Part shown: positions 32,127-39,194 of the stretch, in pieces
Layout: the number at the start of each line of letters is the position of its first letter
Numbering within the stretch: the stretch's first letter is position 1
Assembly (NCBI GenBank): GCA_007694115.1
Contig: RECJ01000112.1
Location: 1 to 39,800, forward strand
DNA length: 39,800 nt
Reading direction: 5' to 3'
Source of the DNA: Leptolyngbya sp. DLM2.Bin27
GTDB taxonomy: Bacteria; Cyanobacteriota; Cyanobacteriia; Phormidesmidales; Phormidesmidaceae
The notes under the pieces: model-generated
What the model was told of the DNA's origin: nothing
Database searches by the model: none
Seen by the model: the letters and a program-made list of their open reading frames with translations, nothing else
Program-made: the position numbers and the translations under genes

Positions 32127-34454
32127 TCATTCAAACCGCTGGGCGGCCTCTGACCAAGTCAGCAGCTCATACCCACCGGGCCTGTGTACCACCAGCCCCA
32201 CGGGCAGGCCATGCTGGGGGTTGGTCAGAGCCATCAGAGTTTGGGGCAAAAACACATCGCTGTAGATCACGCGATGGTCTGGGCCGAGGATGACGACCTT
32301 GGGCGCGGTAGCTTCGACTGGAACCCCCCACTGTCTCAGCTGGCCCAGGGCGGATTGATCCCAGGTCAGCACTCGCTCTAGCTGGCCGTCACCGGTCAGG
32401 TCGAGGCTTTGCTCCGCCAGGTTGGCGAGCTCTTGCTTAAACCCAGCCGGGGCCGTCTGGCCAGGAAACAATGCAGTGGTGAGGGGGGCTGCGATCGCAC
32501 TCCCATCGGGCCGCTGCCGCTGGCTGGCATCGAGCCACATCAGCGCCCCCTGAGAAAACACCAGCGGCGGCGGCGACGAGGGCATCACCCCCGGCCCAGT
32601 GGCCAGCAGCGTCGGGATGCCGTTGGTCAGCCTCAGCCCTCGCACCGTGAGGGGGGCAGGCACCCCCGTGGTGGGGCTAACCCAGCGCAAGATCTGGGGG
32701 GCCGCCTGGGCCGCTGGCTGTACCGCAGGCCACAGCGCCGCCGGAGTAACATTGGCGGCCAGCCCCAGGCGGCCCCACCCCTGGGGCTGGCGCACGGCCC
32801 GCAGGTCAATGGCATACCACTGCCCCAACGCAGCATCTAGGGACTGGCCTGGGGCCGCATAACCGGCGGTGGGGGCGGGGATGGGGGTAGCCTGACCGAT
32901 CAAGGCACTGGCAGGGGGCAGGGCCAGGGCAGGGCCAGGCTGGGCTTGACCCTGGGCCGCTGCGTCTGGCTGTGAGGTGGCGACGGTTTGCCCGGTGCTG
33001 GCCTCGGGCAGACTGACTACCGGCGCGGTCGCCGCCGTGAGCATGGTCGCCAGCCGCTGGCGGGCGGCGGCGGGCACGGGCTGACGATCGAGCCAGTCTT
33101 GGGTGGCCCCGTCGACGAAGGTTGACTGATTTTGCAGGGCTTTTAGGGCCAGCCCGCCCCACACATAGACCGCAGGCTCGGGGTTGGGCAGGGCGGCAGC
33201 GGCGCTGATGCGACGCCACATGTGGCCCTGGTCGGCCCCCAGCCGAGTGATCATGGCGGGCACCAGCCTGGGAGAGGTTTCGAGCTGCGTCAGGGCTGTC
33301 TCCCAGCGACCATCGATCAGCAGCGCCAGGATGGCTTGGGTCGGCGTTGACCAGTCTTGCTCCGCCTGTTGATGGGTAATCATCGCGTGGCGCTCTATCA
33401 GCCTGAGCTGGGCCTCAGCGGCTGGGTTCCACCCCTGGCCCAGAGCCGTTTTGAGCTGGCCCAGGTGGGTCTGGGCCTTGGGCCACAGCCCGCCTCGGGC
33501 CAATCGCAGCGCCTGCTGGTAGGCCCCCGCCTGGCCCCCGGCATCCACCGGCACCCGCACCCACGACACCGACTGCATGTGCGGCGTCGCCCCCGCCCGC
33601 CCCCCAGAAAACACCTGCCAGCCCTGCAGGGCAGGCTCTAGACCTACGGTTTCGTCAATGATCAAATCGCTGGGGCCATCGCCATCGAGATCGACCCACT
33701 GGGGCGGTTTGTTGGCTGGGCTGCTCCAGGGTTCGAGCAGGGTTAGCTGCTGGTTTTGGTGCTGGTTTTGGTGCTGGTTTTGGTGCTGGTTTTGGTGCTG
33801 GTTTTGGTGATTGACGTGCAGCAGCTGCCCGTAGCGCAGGGTTAGCCCCTGCTGTTGCCAGGTGCCCTCAAGGGTGAGCCAGGTGCCGGCGGTGGCCACG
33901 GGGGCGGCGGGCAGCGGCACTACCCGCGTTAGGGCAAAGCTGGCGGGCATCGCCGTAGGGGGCTGGGATCGATGGCGCAGGGGGGCGATGACGGCGTCTT
34001 TGGGCAGGGGGTCAATGTCGAGGGTTGCGATCGCCCGCAGCTCGTCCCCATCGGCTTGAAACAGGGCCAAAGACACCACCGCCCCCGAATCGATCAACAG
34101 CGGCACGAGCACGAGCCCAGCGGTGTCGGTGCCTTCTAGGTACAGGGGGTCGCCCAGCCGCTGCTGGGCCGCCGCCGCCTGATCTCGCAGATCGTCCAGG
34201 CTGGCCGCTGGGGCTAGGGCCAAAGGCCGCCGCTGCCACTGCGCCCAGCCCTGGGGCACTACCTCCGGGTCGAGCATCAGCCGCAGCCCCAGGCGAAAAC
34301 TCAGCCCCAGCAGCAGCAGCCCCACCCCCAGCCCGGCAGCCACCAGCCCGAGCCCCAGCAGCGAGCGCCAAAGGCGGCGGCGCGGCCTCACCCATACCTG
34401 CACCACACCCGGGGCGCTGGGCGGCTTGGAGCCAAGAGAAGCACGAAAACCCAT
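32127..34454 (-). CDS. Large membrane-anchored cyanobacterial hypothetical protein with a QNQH tandem repeat
   Basis: N-terminal Arg-rich region then TM (LLGLGLVAAGLGVGLLLLGLSF); start moved to MGFRASLG at 34454, removing overlap with ilvA. Confidence 0.8.
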   Translation of the reverse strand: MGFRASLGSKPPSAPGVVQVWVRPRRRLWRSLLGLGLVAAGLGVGLLLLGLSFRLGLRLMLDPEVVPQGWAQWQRRPLALAPAASLDDLRDQAAAAQQRLGDPLYLEGTDTAGLVLVPLLIDSGAVVSLALFQADGDELRAIATLDIDPLPKDAVIAPLRHRSQPPTAMPASFALTRVVPLPAAPVATAGTWLTLEGTWQQQGLTLRYGQLLHVNHQNQHQNQHQNQHQNQHQNQQLTLLEPWSSPANKPPQWVDLDGDGPSDLIIDETVGLEPALQGWQVFSGGRAGATPHMQSVSWVRVPVDAGGQAGAYQQALRLARGGLWPKAQTHLGQLKTALGQGWNPAAEAQLRLIERHAMITHQQAEQDWSTPTQAILALLIDGRWETALTQLETSPRLVPAMITRLGADQGHMWRRISAAAALPNPEPAVYVWGGLALKALQNQSTFVDGATQDWLDRQPVPAAARQRLATMLTAATAPVVSLPEASTGQTVATSQPDAAAQGQAQPGPALALPPASALIGQATPIPAPTAGYAAPGQSLDAALGQWYAIDLRAVRQPQGWGRLGLAANVTPAALWPAVQPAAQAAPQILRWVSPTTGVPAPLTVRGLRLTNGIPTLLATGPGVMPSSPPPLVFSQGALMWLDASQRQRPDGSAIAAPLTTALFPGQTAPAGFKQELANLAEQSLDLTGDGQLERVLTWDQSALGQLRQWGVPVEATAPKVVILGPDHRVIYSDVFLPQTLMALTNPQHGLPVGLVVHRPGGYELLTWSEAAQRFE
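33749..33808. repeat. Five perfect in-frame 12-bp repeats, GCTGGTTTTGGT (encode QNQH on the minus strand)
   Basis: Units at 33749, 33761, 33773, 33785 and 33797. Confidence 0.98.
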
Positions 34455-34641
34455 AGACAGAGACACTACACCAGTGTTACCTGCAACTCTACCGCAGGAT
34501 GCTGAGGTCAGAGCCCCATTCTCCCGATCGTTGAACGTACGGGACAGATCTACGGGGCAGAACTCAAACCCTCCACGCTCAACTTGCCATGACCACCCTC
34601 GCCCTAGAATAAAGGCTGATTCCTTCGCCACCGCTGCCACA

Positions 34642-36319: not shown

Positions 36320-36940
36320 ATGGTGCAGACATTACCCATTGAGCAGTTGACCCTGTATGACCTGGAACAACGGCTTGGGCTTCAGGAGGTTGCTGATGGT
36401 TCTTTTTTCCCAGAGTGGCAAGAAGATTTGCCTGCGCTCAACTCAGCAGAACAGGAACGATTGGCCCGAGTAGAGGCCGCCTATGCCAACCTGGAGCGGC
36501 GATCGCTACTAGAAAATACCGTCAAGCTGGCCGTGGTCGCGCCCCTACTCGATTTAGCTGGGCTGTTTTTGCCGCCGTTTTACGTCACCACCGAGAAAAC
36601 GGTAGAAATCACCGCCCAAACCGATGAACTTACCCTACGGGGACGACTAGATGTGTTGGTGCTGAAAGACCAACTCTGGGTGCTGGTGATTGAGTCGAAG
36701 CGGGCTGAGTTTTCGCTCAAGGTGGGTATTCCCCAGGTGTTGGGCTATATGATGGCTGCCCCAGACTCACCGCTACCGCTGTATGGCCTGGTGACCAATG
36801 GCAGTAGTTTTGTGTTTGTAAAGCTAGCAGGTCGGCAATATGCTCGCTCTAAAGAGCTGATTTTGGATCAAGATCAGGGGCTGGCGCAGACGCTACAGAT
36901 CATGAAGGCGCTAGCAAAAATTGTGGCGGACGCTTACTAG
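36320..36940 (+). CDS. Stand-alone type I restriction R-subunit N-terminal-like (HsdR_N/PD-(D/E)XK-type) protein
   Basis: LRGRLDVLVLKDQLWVLVIESKRAEFSLKVGIPQVLGYMMAAP (D...ExK arrangement); AGGAGG upstream of the ATG; 206 aa with no helicase domain. Confidence 0.8.
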   Translation: MVQTLPIEQLTLYDLEQRLGLQEVADGSFFPEWQEDLPALNSAEQERLARVEAAYANLERRSLLENTVKLAVVAPLLDLAGLFLPPFYVTTEKTVEITAQTDELTLRGRLDVLVLKDQLWVLVIESKRAEFSLKVGIPQVLGYMMAAPDSPLPLYGLVTNGSSFVFVKLAGRQYARSKELILDQDQGLAQTLQIMKALAKIVADAY

Positions 36941-36968: not shown

Positions 36969-38585
36969 TCATTGTGGTGGGTCATTGAGTTGGGCACGAA
37001 CTTGGTCGGCATACTGGCAGAATAGCTCGAAGCCGATTTCCTGGCCAATGGCTGTGGCCTCGTCCAGGGATTGGTGTGCCCTTGTCAGGTCGTTGAGCTG
37101 CACCTGGGCCTGGACAATGAACATGAGCAGATTGCGGCCCTGGCTGTAGCGATCGCCAATAGCCCCAAAAATCTCCTGCGCTTGCAAAAAATATCCCATT
37201 GCCTGCTGGGGATCGTCTTGCAAACTGCCCACGCCCTGCACAGCGTTGGCTTCGCCGAGCCGATCGCCCACCTCGCGATAAATCGTCAACGCCTGCTCGT
37301 AGTTCGCCAGCGCCTCTCGACTTTGTTTGAGGAATTGCAGCACGTCGCCCTGCGCTTTCAGCGTATTGGCTACTAAATTCCGCTCATAGGCCGTTTGCGG
37401 TTGCCACTCGGTCACCAGGCGACCATAAAAGTCGCTCTGTAGCAGCCGGTCGGCCCCACTGCCCTGAAACTGCAAAAACATCTCGGGGCTGCTATAGCGA
37501 CCGACCTGCTCATCGGCCACAGTGCGCTGCTGCATCAAGCGCCACGCCGCCGCATATTCCCCTAGCTCGCAGGCGTGGTAAAACAGCTCAAAATAGTCGC
37601 CCAGGGCTGCCGGGGGCGTGCCCACCGCCAGCGGCACCAGACGCTCCTGGTAGTAGGTGGCTGCCGCCTGGTGGGCCGGGGCCAGGTCTGTGGCCCACTG
37701 CCGCGCAAACCGCTGTACCAGCGGCAAAAACTCAAACTGCTGCTGGGGCAGCTCTTGCAGCAGTGACCGATCCACCAGCCCATAGAGGACATCGACTGTA
37801 GTGGTAGCTGCCATTGCCTGGGCCGCTGCCACATCAAAGGCACGGTTATACACACTCAGGCCATACCACAGGGTTTGCAGCGGTGCCGCCAAGCGAGCCA
37901 AGGTCTCTTGCAGCACCGTGGCTACGCTGGCCTCTTTGTCACCCCGGTGCAACCCTACAATTTGCCCTAGCCGTACCAGGTCGTCGGCCCCCAGGGCATA
38001 TTTCACTTTTGGGGCAGAATTTTGGCGCGGGTTCTTCAACCAACCCACAGTCAAGTTCAGCAGCAGTGGGTGGCCATCGGCTAGCTCTACAAATTGTGCC
38101 AGGTCGGCCTCGCTCCCCGAAATCCCCCGTTGCTTTAGCAGCGCCACCCCGGCGGCGGTGGTCAGCCCGCCCAGGTCGCGCCAGCGGCTGCGCTCGGCGG
38201 GCAGGGCAGGCTTTTCGCGGCTGGTCAGCAGCAGCACCGTCTGCCGCCCCCACTCTAGCCACCGCAGCAAAAACGCTTCATAGGCAGGGTCTTGCCAGGT
38301 AATGTCAGGGTGCAGCAAACTTTCCAAGTTGTCCATCACCACCAAATAGCGCTTTTGGCTCAGGTAGTTAAGTGCAAAAGTGGTCACCTGGTCGTTGCTC
38401 AGGGTAGCCTCTAGGTCGCCTGCCCCCAATAGGCGTAGCACCTCCCGGCTCCACACCCCAAAGGGTTGCGTCTGGTTAAAGGCCACCCATAGCACTTGGT
38501 CGAACCCGGTTTGGGTTTCGCACAGCTTGGCCCCTAGAGCCGACTTGCCATAGCCCCCCGCCGCCCGCAACCCCACCAGCCGCAC
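36969..38585 (-). CDS. STAND/NB-ARC ATPase with C-terminal TPRs; the same frame is open to 38723 and continues past a TGA into 38724..39194
   Basis: P-loop GLRAAGGYGKSALGAKL, Walker B-like YLVVMDNLESLL, TSREKP, DGHPLLLNLTVGWL; C-terminal TPR-like repeats. First standard start (GTG 38585) lies inside the conserved region. Confidence 0.85.
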   Translation of the reverse strand: MRLVGLRAAGGYGKSALGAKLCETQTGFDQVLWVAFNQTQPFGVWSREVLRLLGAGDLEATLSNDQVTTFALNYLSQKRYLVVMDNLESLLHPDITWQDPAYEAFLLRWLEWGRQTVLLLTSREKPALPAERSRWRDLGGLTTAAGVALLKQRGISGSEADLAQFVELADGHPLLLNLTVGWLKNPRQNSAPKVKYALGADDLVRLGQIVGLHRGDKEASVATVLQETLARLAAPLQTLWYGLSVYNRAFDVAAAQAMAATTTVDVLYGLVDRSLLQELPQQQFEFLPLVQRFARQWATDLAPAHQAAATYYQERLVPLAVGTPPAALGDYFELFYHACELGEYAAAWRLMQQRTVADEQVGRYSSPEMFLQFQGSGADRLLQSDFYGRLVTEWQPQTAYERNLVANTLKAQGDVLQFLKQSREALANYEQALTIYREVGDRLGEANAVQGVGSLQDDPQQAMGYFLQAQEIFGAIGDRYSQGRNLLMFIVQAQVQLNDLTRAHQSLDEATAIGQEIGFELFCQYADQVRAQLNDPPQ

Positions 38586-38723
38586 CCCAGGGTCTTGCAG
38601 CCAGCCGCCAATTTCGGCCAGTTCTTCTGTGCGCCCCTGCCAGTAGTCGGTAGAGGGCGGCTGAGTATAGAGTAGGTAGCTGGCGAGGGTTACTTCGTCG
38701 GCCCTCTGTACCGACGACTGTAG

Positions 38724-39194
38724 TCAATCGTTGGGCTGTGCCCCAAAGTAAAACCGGGCATTTTCCCCGGCTTGGATCACCTGCGATTTAGGGTCATTCA
38801 CCTGTAGCCCCTGCCCCCCGGTCACGGTCTGCACATTGCGAGCCCCGCTGGCGTCGATCTGCACTAGCACCTGCTGGAGTTCGCGGGCCAGGGGTTCAAC
38901 TTCTGTAGCCAGTTCTGAATTTTCCAGCGCTTTGCTCAAATACTCTTGCAGCCGTTCCTGCGCCTTGGGCTCTCCCTTTGCGGCCTGCTCCAGCAACTTA
39001 TCGGTATCGGGCTTGCCCTTCAACAGGCGATCCCACACCAGTTGACCCAGCTTTTTAATCGGCGCTGCGGCCAGGGTAACGACCTCGCCGCCCAGCTTGC
39101 TGCCCAGCCCTTCATAAAACTTGTTGAGCACCACCGCCGCAATGGGGGTTGCCAGGGCCAGAGAAATAGTTTCTAGCATAGAAATAGCAGCCAA
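38724..39194 (-). CDS. 156-aa N-terminal module, probably the first part of the STAND protein
   Basis: MLETISLALATPIAAVVLNKFYEGLGSKLGG... ending NVQTVTGGQGLQVNDPKSQVIQAGENARFYFGAQPND-stop; same frame as the NB-ARC ORF (39194-38585 = 609 = 3x203). Confidence 0.8.
   Translation of the reverse strand: MAAISMLETISLALATPIAAVVLNKFYEGLGSKLGGEVVTLAAAPIKKLGQLVWDRLLKGKPDTDKLLEQAAKGEPKAQERLQEYLSKALENSELATEVEPLARELQQVLVQIDASGARNVQTVTGGQGLQVNDPKSQVIQAGENARFYFGAQPND

What the first reader, a model, noticed from the sequence alone, without database searches (positions are those of the whole stretch)
36969..39194. STAND/NB-ARC ATPase interrupted by a single in-frame TGA (TGA CTA) between its N-terminal module and ATPase
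On the minus strand the upstream 156-aa ORF ends ...FYFGAQPND-TGA. The same frame then continues LQSSVQRADEVTLASYLLYTQPPSTDYWQGRTEELAEIGGWLQDPGVRLVGLRAAGGYGKSAL. YWQGRTEELAEIGGWL looks like the conserved GR-x-EL segment just before the P-loop in NB-ARC/STAND ATPases. No ATG, GTG or TTG lies in frame between the TGA and GTG 38585, which is only about 9 codons before the P-loop. The ATPase therefore seems to need residues that can only be translated through the TGA. Options are a recent nonsense mutation (phase-variable or inactivated defence gene), a sequencing error, or genuine readthrough. UGA-CUA is a known leaky context in viral and eukaryotic readthrough; its relevance in cyanobacteria is unproven.
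Basis: partly seen in the sequence, partly recalled or inferred. Interest (0 to 1): 0.72.

Follow-up and report, generated by a model that had tools for sequence, protein, structure and literature searches.

The report
Programmed stop-codon readthrough in bacterial NLRs
A stop codon in the middle of a cyanobacterial immune-receptor-like gene is not a mutation: it is conserved in over a hundred related genes together with a specific RNA structure just after it, which points to bacteria deliberately reading through a stop codon to make both a short effector protein and a rarer, longer effector-plus-sensor protein.

Summary
The in-frame TGA (38726-38724, minus strand) is real, and it is neither decay nor a sequencing accident. 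It belongs to a conserved recoding element: TGA or TAG, then an 8-nt spacer, a 5-6 bp hairpin with strong compensatory change, and a likely H-type pseudoknot. A covariance model found 88 analysed copies in 67 of 391 cyanobacterial genomes (44 genera). In 119 unique loci the stop is TGA 111, TAG 8, TAA 0. A model built without the stop codon finds the same places, and no sense-codon variant turned up. The frame after the stop is open for at least 300 nt in 111 of 115 loci, against 0 and 3 for the other two frames. Codons between the element and the first possible start codon are under protein-level selection (dN/dS about 0.37). The element joins varied upstream modules (helical plus amyloid-like tail, TIR, hydrolase) to varied STAND sensors (NB-ARC or NACHT with TPR, WD40 or HEAT). 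Related loci without the element are two-gene pairs in which both proteins carry the same tail motif. Best explanation: pseudoknot-stimulated programmed readthrough, giving much short effector and little effector-sensor fusion from one gene. Readthrough itself was not measured.

The parts
38724..39179 (-). Short ORF (151 aa, ATG 39179 to TGA): effector-like helical domain (residues about 1-111) with a C-terminal amyloid-like tail
   Evidence: Homologues start at the same ATG. AlphaFold2: six helices with pLDDT about 80, tail below 50. No Pfam, NCBIfam or PADLOC match.
38727..38846 (-). C-terminal tail of the short ORF (residues about 112-151); low-complexity beta/amyloid-like motif
   Evidence: Conserved tail in alignment A3. 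Other readthrough loci have other tails, one of which is of the same type as the N-terminal motif of two-gene sensors.
38724..38726 (-). Recoded stop codon TGA
   Evidence: TGA/TAG at this place in all 119 unique loci.
38716..38723 (-). 8-nt spacer CTACAGTC between stop and stem 1
   Evidence: Stem 1 starts at exactly this distance in 103 of 104 loci with a perfect stem.
38711..38715 (-). Stem 1, 5' strand (GTCGG)
   Evidence: Covariation on 17 and 88 sequences.
38697..38701 (-). Stem 1, 3' strand (CCGAC)
   Evidence: Covariation on 17 and 88 sequences.
38702..38706 (-). Stem 2 of the proposed pseudoknot, 5' strand in the hairpin loop (GAGGG)
   Evidence: Partner-permutation test on 104 loci: 10.83 observed, 9.56 +/- 0.27 permuted, maximum 10.36 of 500.
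38685..38689 (-). Stem 2 of the proposed pseudoknot, 3' strand (CCCTC)
   Evidence: GAGGG/CCCUC also appears in the single-sequence fold.
36969..38723 (-). Readthrough extension, 584 aa: linker, NB-ARC STAND ATPase, TPR repeats
   Evidence: Pfam NB-ARC 4.1e-7 and TPR_12 1.2e-10. Homologues in 50 of 147 related genomes.
38678..38726 (-). Whole recoding element as matched by covariance model R1
   Evidence: 43.8 bits, E 5.5e-8 in the window; the only copy in this genome.
38583..38585 (-). First in-frame canonical start codon after the stop (GTG), 7 codons before the P-loop: a fallback internal start that would delete the GR-x-EL segment

Best explanation
The gene is expressed by programmed readthrough of UGA. 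Most ribosomes stop and make a 151-aa effector-like protein (helical domain plus an amyloid-like tail). A minority, helped by the leaky UGA-C context and a compact hairpin/pseudoknot that starts exactly 8 nt after the stop, decode the UGA with a near-cognate tRNA (probably tRNA-Trp). They continue in frame to make a roughly 736-aa fusion in which the same effector and tail carry an NB-ARC ATPase and TPR sensor. Inferred function: the rare fusion is the sensor. When triggered, it oligomerises through its STAND ATPase, and its tail templates the abundant short effector, probably causing abortive cell death or defence. One gene thus sets the effector:sensor ratio, as retroviral gag/gag-pol does. 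Shown by sequence: the conserved stop, the element, its covariation, the open frame, protein-level selection upstream of any canonical start codon, and the domain make-up. Inferred: readthrough itself, its level, the amino acid inserted, tail templating and defence. My confidence is about 0.9 for readthrough and about 0.5 for the seed/substrate role; the figure below is for readthrough as the way the long product is made.
For: (1) Stop-plus-motif in frame between two modules in 88 hits over 67 of 391 genomes, 44 of 159 genera, plus 39 pattern hits in named cyanobacteria including isolates and complete genomes. (2) TGA 111, TAG 8, TAA 0, although long open frames in the same loci end TAA 37, TAG 31, TGA 30. 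(3) A model without the stop codon (R2) finds the same places: all hits at E below 0.0035 follow TGA/TAG, with no sense variant. (4) Stem 1 covariation on 88 sequences: 0.513 against 0.168 in shuffles (0 of 500), 5 of 5 pairs with double changes; spacer exactly 8 nt in 103 of 104; stem 2 permutation test. (5) The +4 base is C in 112 of 119, a known leaky context; 3' structures about 8 nt after the stop are typical of viral readthrough (PMC3542737). (6) In-frame openness of at least 300 nt: 111 of 115, against 0 and 3 in the other frames. (7) dN/dS 0.37 in codons after the element and before the first possible start (Fisher p 9e-7, treating counts as independent), and suppressed synonymous change inside the element (0.15 against 0.39). 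(8) 55 of 110 loci have no ATG/GTG/TTG before the GR motif, and first-start positions are scattered. (9) Two-gene relatives (L017, L022, L024) put the same tail motif on both effector and sensor, which is what readthrough achieves with one copy.
Against: No readthrough product has been measured. The window's own 71 nt do not fold better than shuffles (z -0.96) and prefer an alternative fold, so the structure rests on comparison, and stem 2 is less well supported than stem 1. 13 of 117 loci lack a perfect 5-bp stem 1, several by one mismatch. A few copies are damaged downstream (L125, L166, L171, L222). Programmed readthrough with standard amino acids in ordinary bacterial genes is barely documented to my knowledge; I found no precedent.
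Confidence: 0.88

Rival explanations
1. Two separate proteins: the sensor is made by termination-reinitiation or internal initiation after the stop, at a canonical or unusual start codon, with the hairpin aiding coupling.
For: Public annotation does this (Nostoc UHCC 0870 plasmid: sensor CDS called 38 codons after the stop). Many loci do have some ATG/GTG/TTG before the P-loop.
Against: No conserved start position; 55 of 110 loci have none before the GR motif and only 12 have an ATG there. The codon after the stop is mostly CTG/CTA, also CTC, CCA, ATC, GAG, AAG. Codons before the first possible start are under protein-level selection. Avoidance of TAA, C at +4 and the 8-nt spacer are readthrough features.
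Confidence: 0.07
2. Selenocysteine, a suppressor tRNA or a changed genetic code reads the UGA.
For: UGA followed by a hairpin resembles a bacterial SECIS element.
Against: UAG is also used (8 loci). No tRNA-Sec above the Rfam cut-off in 17 of 18 motif genomes; the one exception is borderline (47.2 against 47), and control genomes ring below cut-off too. No UCA or CUA anticodon among the tRNAs located in this incomplete genome; tRNA-Trp CCA is present. UGA ends other long open frames in the same loci.
Confidence: 0.02
3. The motif is a DNA or RNA joint for exchanging effector and sensor modules, and the stop truly separates two genes.
For: Unrelated upstream and downstream modules share the element.
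Against: Exact frame maintenance, stop-type bias, RNA-type compensatory changes including G-U pairs, and protein-level selection after the stop. Module shuffling around it can be true as well.
Confidence: 0.02
4. Recent nonsense mutation, pseudogene, phase variation or assembly error in this genome.
For: A single stop in an otherwise long frame; the source is an incomplete multi-contig assembly.
Against: The same stop and element occur in 119 unique loci from many genera, including isolates.
Confidence: 0.01

Closest known systems
Murine leukaemia virus gag-pol readthrough (type III, compact pseudoknot) and alphavirus-type UGA-CUA readthrough (type II)
   Same: Leaky stop, 8-nt spacer, compact 3' hairpin/pseudoknot; short and long products sharing an N-terminus (PMC3542737).
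   Different: In bacterial chromosomes and plasmids, not eukaryotic viruses; UGA-CUR with a non-purine spacer (MLV is UAG-G with a purine-rich spacer); stems of 4-6 bp; joins an immune-type effector to a sensor.
Bacterial selenocysteine insertion (UGA plus SECIS hairpin)
   Same: Stop codon followed directly by a structured element in bacterial coding sequence.
   Different: UAG also used; no convincing tRNA-Sec; the position is a linker between modules, not a catalytic site.
BASS/BELL amyloid NLR signalosomes of filamentous bacteria (PMC7889193)
   Same: Helical, TIR or other effector with a C-terminal amyloid-like motif next to an NLR; known in cyanobacteria as adjacent or overlapping two-gene clusters.
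   Different: Here one copy of the motif serves both proteins through stop-codon readthrough instead of two genes with two copies.
NB-ARC/NACHT STAND ATPases with TPR, WD40 or HEAT sensors
   Same: Domain make-up of the downstream product.
   Different: The effector is encoded ahead of a stop codon rather than in a continuous reading frame.

Membership tests
Programmed stop-codon readthrough | Conserved stop, in frame, between two conserved coding regions | tested here: met
   88 model hits plus 39 pattern hits; 119 unique loci; in-frame open 111 of 115
Programmed stop-codon readthrough | Leaky stop identity and 3' context | tested here: met
   TGA 111, TAG 8, TAA 0; +4 C in 112 of 119; background usage differs
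Programmed stop-codon readthrough | Stimulatory 3' structure about 8 nt downstream | tested here: met
   A conserved structure is there: 103 of 104 at exactly 8 nt; covariation above 500 of 500 shuffles. That it stimulates readthrough was not tested
Programmed stop-codon readthrough | Region after the stop under protein-level selection before any start codon | tested here: met
   dN/dS 0.37 over 22 independent pairs
Programmed stop-codon readthrough | Extended protein detected in cells | not testable with these tools
   Needs a reporter, Western blot or mass spectrometry
MLV-type pseudoknot readthrough | H-type pseudoknot (loop pairs with sequence 3' of the stem) | tested here: met
   Partner-permutation test z about 4.7, 0 of 500 permutations reach it; weaker than stem 1, and some loci show no contiguous stem 2
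MLV-type pseudoknot readthrough | UAG followed by G and a purine-rich spacer | tested here: not met
   UGA-CUR and a mixed spacer; so it looks to work like MLV, but is not that class
Selenocysteine recoding | tRNA-Sec present | tested here: not met
   17 of 18 motif genomes below cut-off, one borderline
BASS/BELL amyloid NLR signalosome | Effector C-terminal motif shared with the NLR N-terminus | tested here: met
   L017 effector ends AEKIGVVNQGTIVNQTNNLSF and NLR starts AEKIGVVNQGTVYNQTNNITI; readthrough locus L092 has AEKIGVVNLGTVQNQTNNINI before the stop. Shown for this tail family, not for the window's own tail
BASS/BELL amyloid NLR signalosome | Match to a published BASS profile or BELL domain; amyloid formation | not tested
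   No BASS or BELL library on hand; no Pfam match for the short ORF; Foldseek against PDB gave nothing
NB-ARC STAND ATPase | NB-ARC domain with P-loop | tested here: met
   Pfam NB-ARC over gathering score; P-loop AAGGYGKS

The most novel reading that the evidence does not exclude
Cyanobacteria carry a dedicated, modular RNA recoding cassette (stop + spacer + pseudoknot) that evolution has fitted between many different immune effectors and many different NLR-like sensors. Readthrough through it is regulated, for example by release-factor or ribosome state during phage attack, so that the recoding step is itself part of threat sensing.
Probability: 0.2. Interest if true: 0.97.

Novelty: new variant of a known kind. 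Interest (0 to 1): 0.92.

Why it matters
Pseudoknot-driven stop-codon readthrough is known from eukaryotic viruses; apart from selenocysteine and pyrrolysine, I know of no family of ordinary bacterial genes built on it, and the papers searched here name none. This would be a large family spread across cyanobacteria. It would show how bacterial NLR systems can set effector-to-sensor stoichiometry from one gene. It would also mean that public annotation, which at such a locus calls a hypothetical protein and a truncated TPR/NB-ARC protein, is systematically wrong there. It gives a ready comparative set (119 loci, plus two-gene counterparts) for testing how bacterial ribosomes read through stops and how NLR amyloid-type signalling is seeded.

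Tried and rejected
Rfam: no family matches the element. The search for related loci with the ATPase found nothing in genome contigs; the genome search worked instead. Single-sequence folding of the window: not significant. Terminator or promoter at the junction: none found. Viral contigs with the strict pattern: none. The Planctomycete pattern hit L263 has no reading frames around it and is chance. R2 hits weaker than E 0.0035 that were new lie outside such genes, except L222 (TGA). PDB fold search for the short ORF: nothing. Ribosome bypassing was rejected because the codon before the stop is variable and does not match a landing codon; -1/+1 frameshifting because both sides are in the same frame. 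Literature searches found no prior report, but only open-licence papers are held.

Full report
OBSERVATION. On the minus strand a 151-aa ORF (ATG 39179) ends at TGA 38726-38724. The same frame runs on for 584 codons to 36969, encoding NB-ARC and TPR. The first canonical start after the TGA is GTG 38585, 7 codons before the P-loop and after the GR-x-EL segment. The window is contig C311 of an incomplete assembly in 322 contigs.

FIRST CLUE. Searching 147 related genomes with the post-stop protein and with the short protein separately gave adjacent pairs in which the short ORF ends in a stop, and the sensor follows in the same frame with [LI]-[QEK]-[SP]-[SP] right after the stop: PND*LQSS (window), TINL*IQSS, PPNP*LESS, PPTP*LEPP, NITF*LQPS and others. 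The nucleotides are strikingly alike: TGA/TAG CTN SAG YCG NCG G... C.G.CAAAG, followed by C-rich sequence.

THE ELEMENT. In 17 sequences the alignment shows, exactly 8 nt after the stop, a 5-bp stem with compensatory changes (GTCGG/CCGAC, GGCGG/CCGCC, GCCCG/CGGGC, GGAGG/CCTCC, GTCCG/CGGAC): covariation score 0.524 against 0.130 in shuffles (0 of 500), and all slid controls far lower. A covariance model (R1) searched against 391 cyanobacterial genomes found 88 analysed copies (plus one cut by a contig end) in 67 genomes and 44 of 159 genera. I fetched all 88. Every one has TGA (80) or TAG (8) at the model's first three positions, most with an upstream frame of about 120-200 codons and a long downstream frame.

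STOP-FREE CONTROL. Because R1 contains the stop, I built R2 from the nucleotides after the stop only. R2 finds the same places: all hits with E below 0.0035 follow TGA or TAG. Weaker new hits are not in such genes, except one further TGA copy, L222, which is frameshifted. So the stop is part of the element and I saw no sense-codon version. On 88 sequences aligned with R2, stem 1 pairs in 97.3% of cells, all five pairs show double changes, and the covariation score is 0.513 against 0.168 (0 of 500). Pooling with 39 pattern hits in named cyanobacteria gives 119 unique loci: TGA 111, TAG 8, TAA 0; C at +4 in 112. Long open frames in the same loci end TAA 37, TAG 31, TGA 30.

GEOMETRY AND PSEUDOKNOT. 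Stem 1 is perfect in 104 of 117 loci (mean 11.8 in mononucleotide shuffles), and starts at the same offset in 103 of 104. The hairpin loop is G-rich and pairs with a C-rich run 7-10 nt after the stem (GGGGGU/ACCCCC, GAGGG/CCCUC, GGGAG/CUCCC, AGGA/UCCU, GGAU/AUCC): observed mean score 10.83, against 9.56 +/- 0.27 with partners permuted among loci (maximum 10.36 of 500). This supports an H-type pseudoknot, less strongly than stem 1. The window sequence alone does not fold significantly, so the structure rests on comparison.

IS THE REGION AFTER THE STOP TRANSLATED FROM THE UPSTREAM START? The frame after the stop is open for at least 300 nt in 111 of 115 loci, against 0 and 3 for the other two frames. 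In 55 of 110 loci no ATG, GTG or TTG occurs before the GR motif, only 12 have an ATG there, and first-start positions are scattered. In 22 independent pairs, codons after the element and before the first possible start in either sequence show pS 0.31 and pN 0.14 (dN/dS 0.37, p 9e-7 on counts treated as independent). Within the element synonymous change is suppressed (0.15 against 0.39 in the domain), as expected of an overlapping RNA signal. These codons can be reached only through the stop or by an unusual start, and the codon after the stop (CTG, CTA, CTC, CCA, ATC, GAG, AAG...) is not a consistent start.

WHAT IT JOINS. Upstream modules: helical domains with short beta/amyloid-like tails (window; AlphaFold2 six helices pLDDT about 80, tail disordered), TIR_2 domains (L100, L139 with EAD9; others by eye), and a DUF676/alpha-beta hydrolase (L154). 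Downstream modules: NB-ARC with TPR, NACHT with HEAT, a WD40 protein with a NACHT-associated domain, and NACHT alone. These are the parts of NLR-like effector/sensor systems. The element is therefore a shared joint between many effectors and many sensors.

WHY READTHROUGH. Some related loci without the element are two-gene pairs. In L017 the effector ends TKLAEKIGVVNQGTIVNQTNNLSF-stop, and the separate sensor gene begins MTEPIAEKIGVVNQGTVYNQTNNITI...ALIYSDPVPDLRLFQGR; L022 and L024 are alike. In the readthrough locus L092 the effector ends TKLAEKIGVVNLGTVQNQTNNINI and is followed by the element, and the readthrough sensor L013 (LIYSDPVPDLRVFQGR) closely resembles the L017 sensor. Published work describes such two-gene clusters in cyanobacteria, with shared amyloid motifs (BASS) at the effector C-terminus and NLR N-terminus, on BELL, TIR and CHAT effectors (PMC7889193). 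Readthrough puts one motif on both proteins from one gene and fixes a high effector:sensor ratio. That is my preferred function; it is inference, and the window's own tail was not tested against BASS profiles.

ALTERNATIVES. Nonsense mutation, assembly error and pseudogene are excluded by the homologues. Selenocysteine is disfavoured by UAG use and the lack of a convincing tRNA-Sec. No suppressor anticodon was seen among the tRNAs located in this incomplete genome. Reinitiation is disfavoured as above. Damaged copies exist: L125 and L222 are frameshifted, L171 has a second stop, L166 lacks a sensor.

KNOWN OR NEW. The architecture (UGA-CUA, 8-nt spacer, compact structure) combines viral type II and type III readthrough (PMC3542737), but the purine-rich UAG-G context of MLV is not met. 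Rfam has no such family, and literature searches found no report. Plasmid annotation splits such a locus into a hypothetical protein and a truncated TPR protein whose start is called 38 codons after the stop. I rate it a new variant of a known kind, with readthrough confidence about 0.9 and the seed/substrate role about 0.5.

Noticed in passing
L009 (G027:C4), L007, L008, L025: The last 130 residues of the window sensor (TPR end, residues 452-582) are 91% identical to part of a different protein in G027, which holds several diverged copies of that segment, while the N-terminal parts differ: the TPR end seems to be shuffled between sensors.
   Followed up: no
L264 (NZ_CP091916.1, Nostoc sp. UHCC 0870 plasmid): The readthrough system is plasmid-borne here, and the annotated sensor start is called 38 codons after the stop; public gene calls at such loci are likely truncated.
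   Followed up: partly
L125, L166, L171, L222: Damaged copies of the system: one-base loop deletion shifting the frame, missing sensor, second in-frame stop, frameshift.
   Followed up: partly
L005 (G038:C115): A sensor homologue is fused in one continuous frame to a sequence that looks like a trypsin-like serine protease upstream, with no stop: a natural fused design of an effector and this sensor.
   Followed up: no
L047, L048, L058: Short-protein homologues ending in TAG followed by repeats of CAGATCCCCGATTTGCC in place of the element; in L058 the frame then runs into what looks like another tail and a sensor start. Possibly another way of joining the modules.
   Followed up: no
window 32127-34640: ORF with an (HQNQ)n run, a simple repeat in the coding sequence of a large protein.
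   Followed up: no
window 36320-36940: Plus-strand ORF of 206 aa that looks, by eye, like a restriction-enzyme-type nuclease fragment next to the readthrough gene; possible defence neighbourhood.
   Followed up: no
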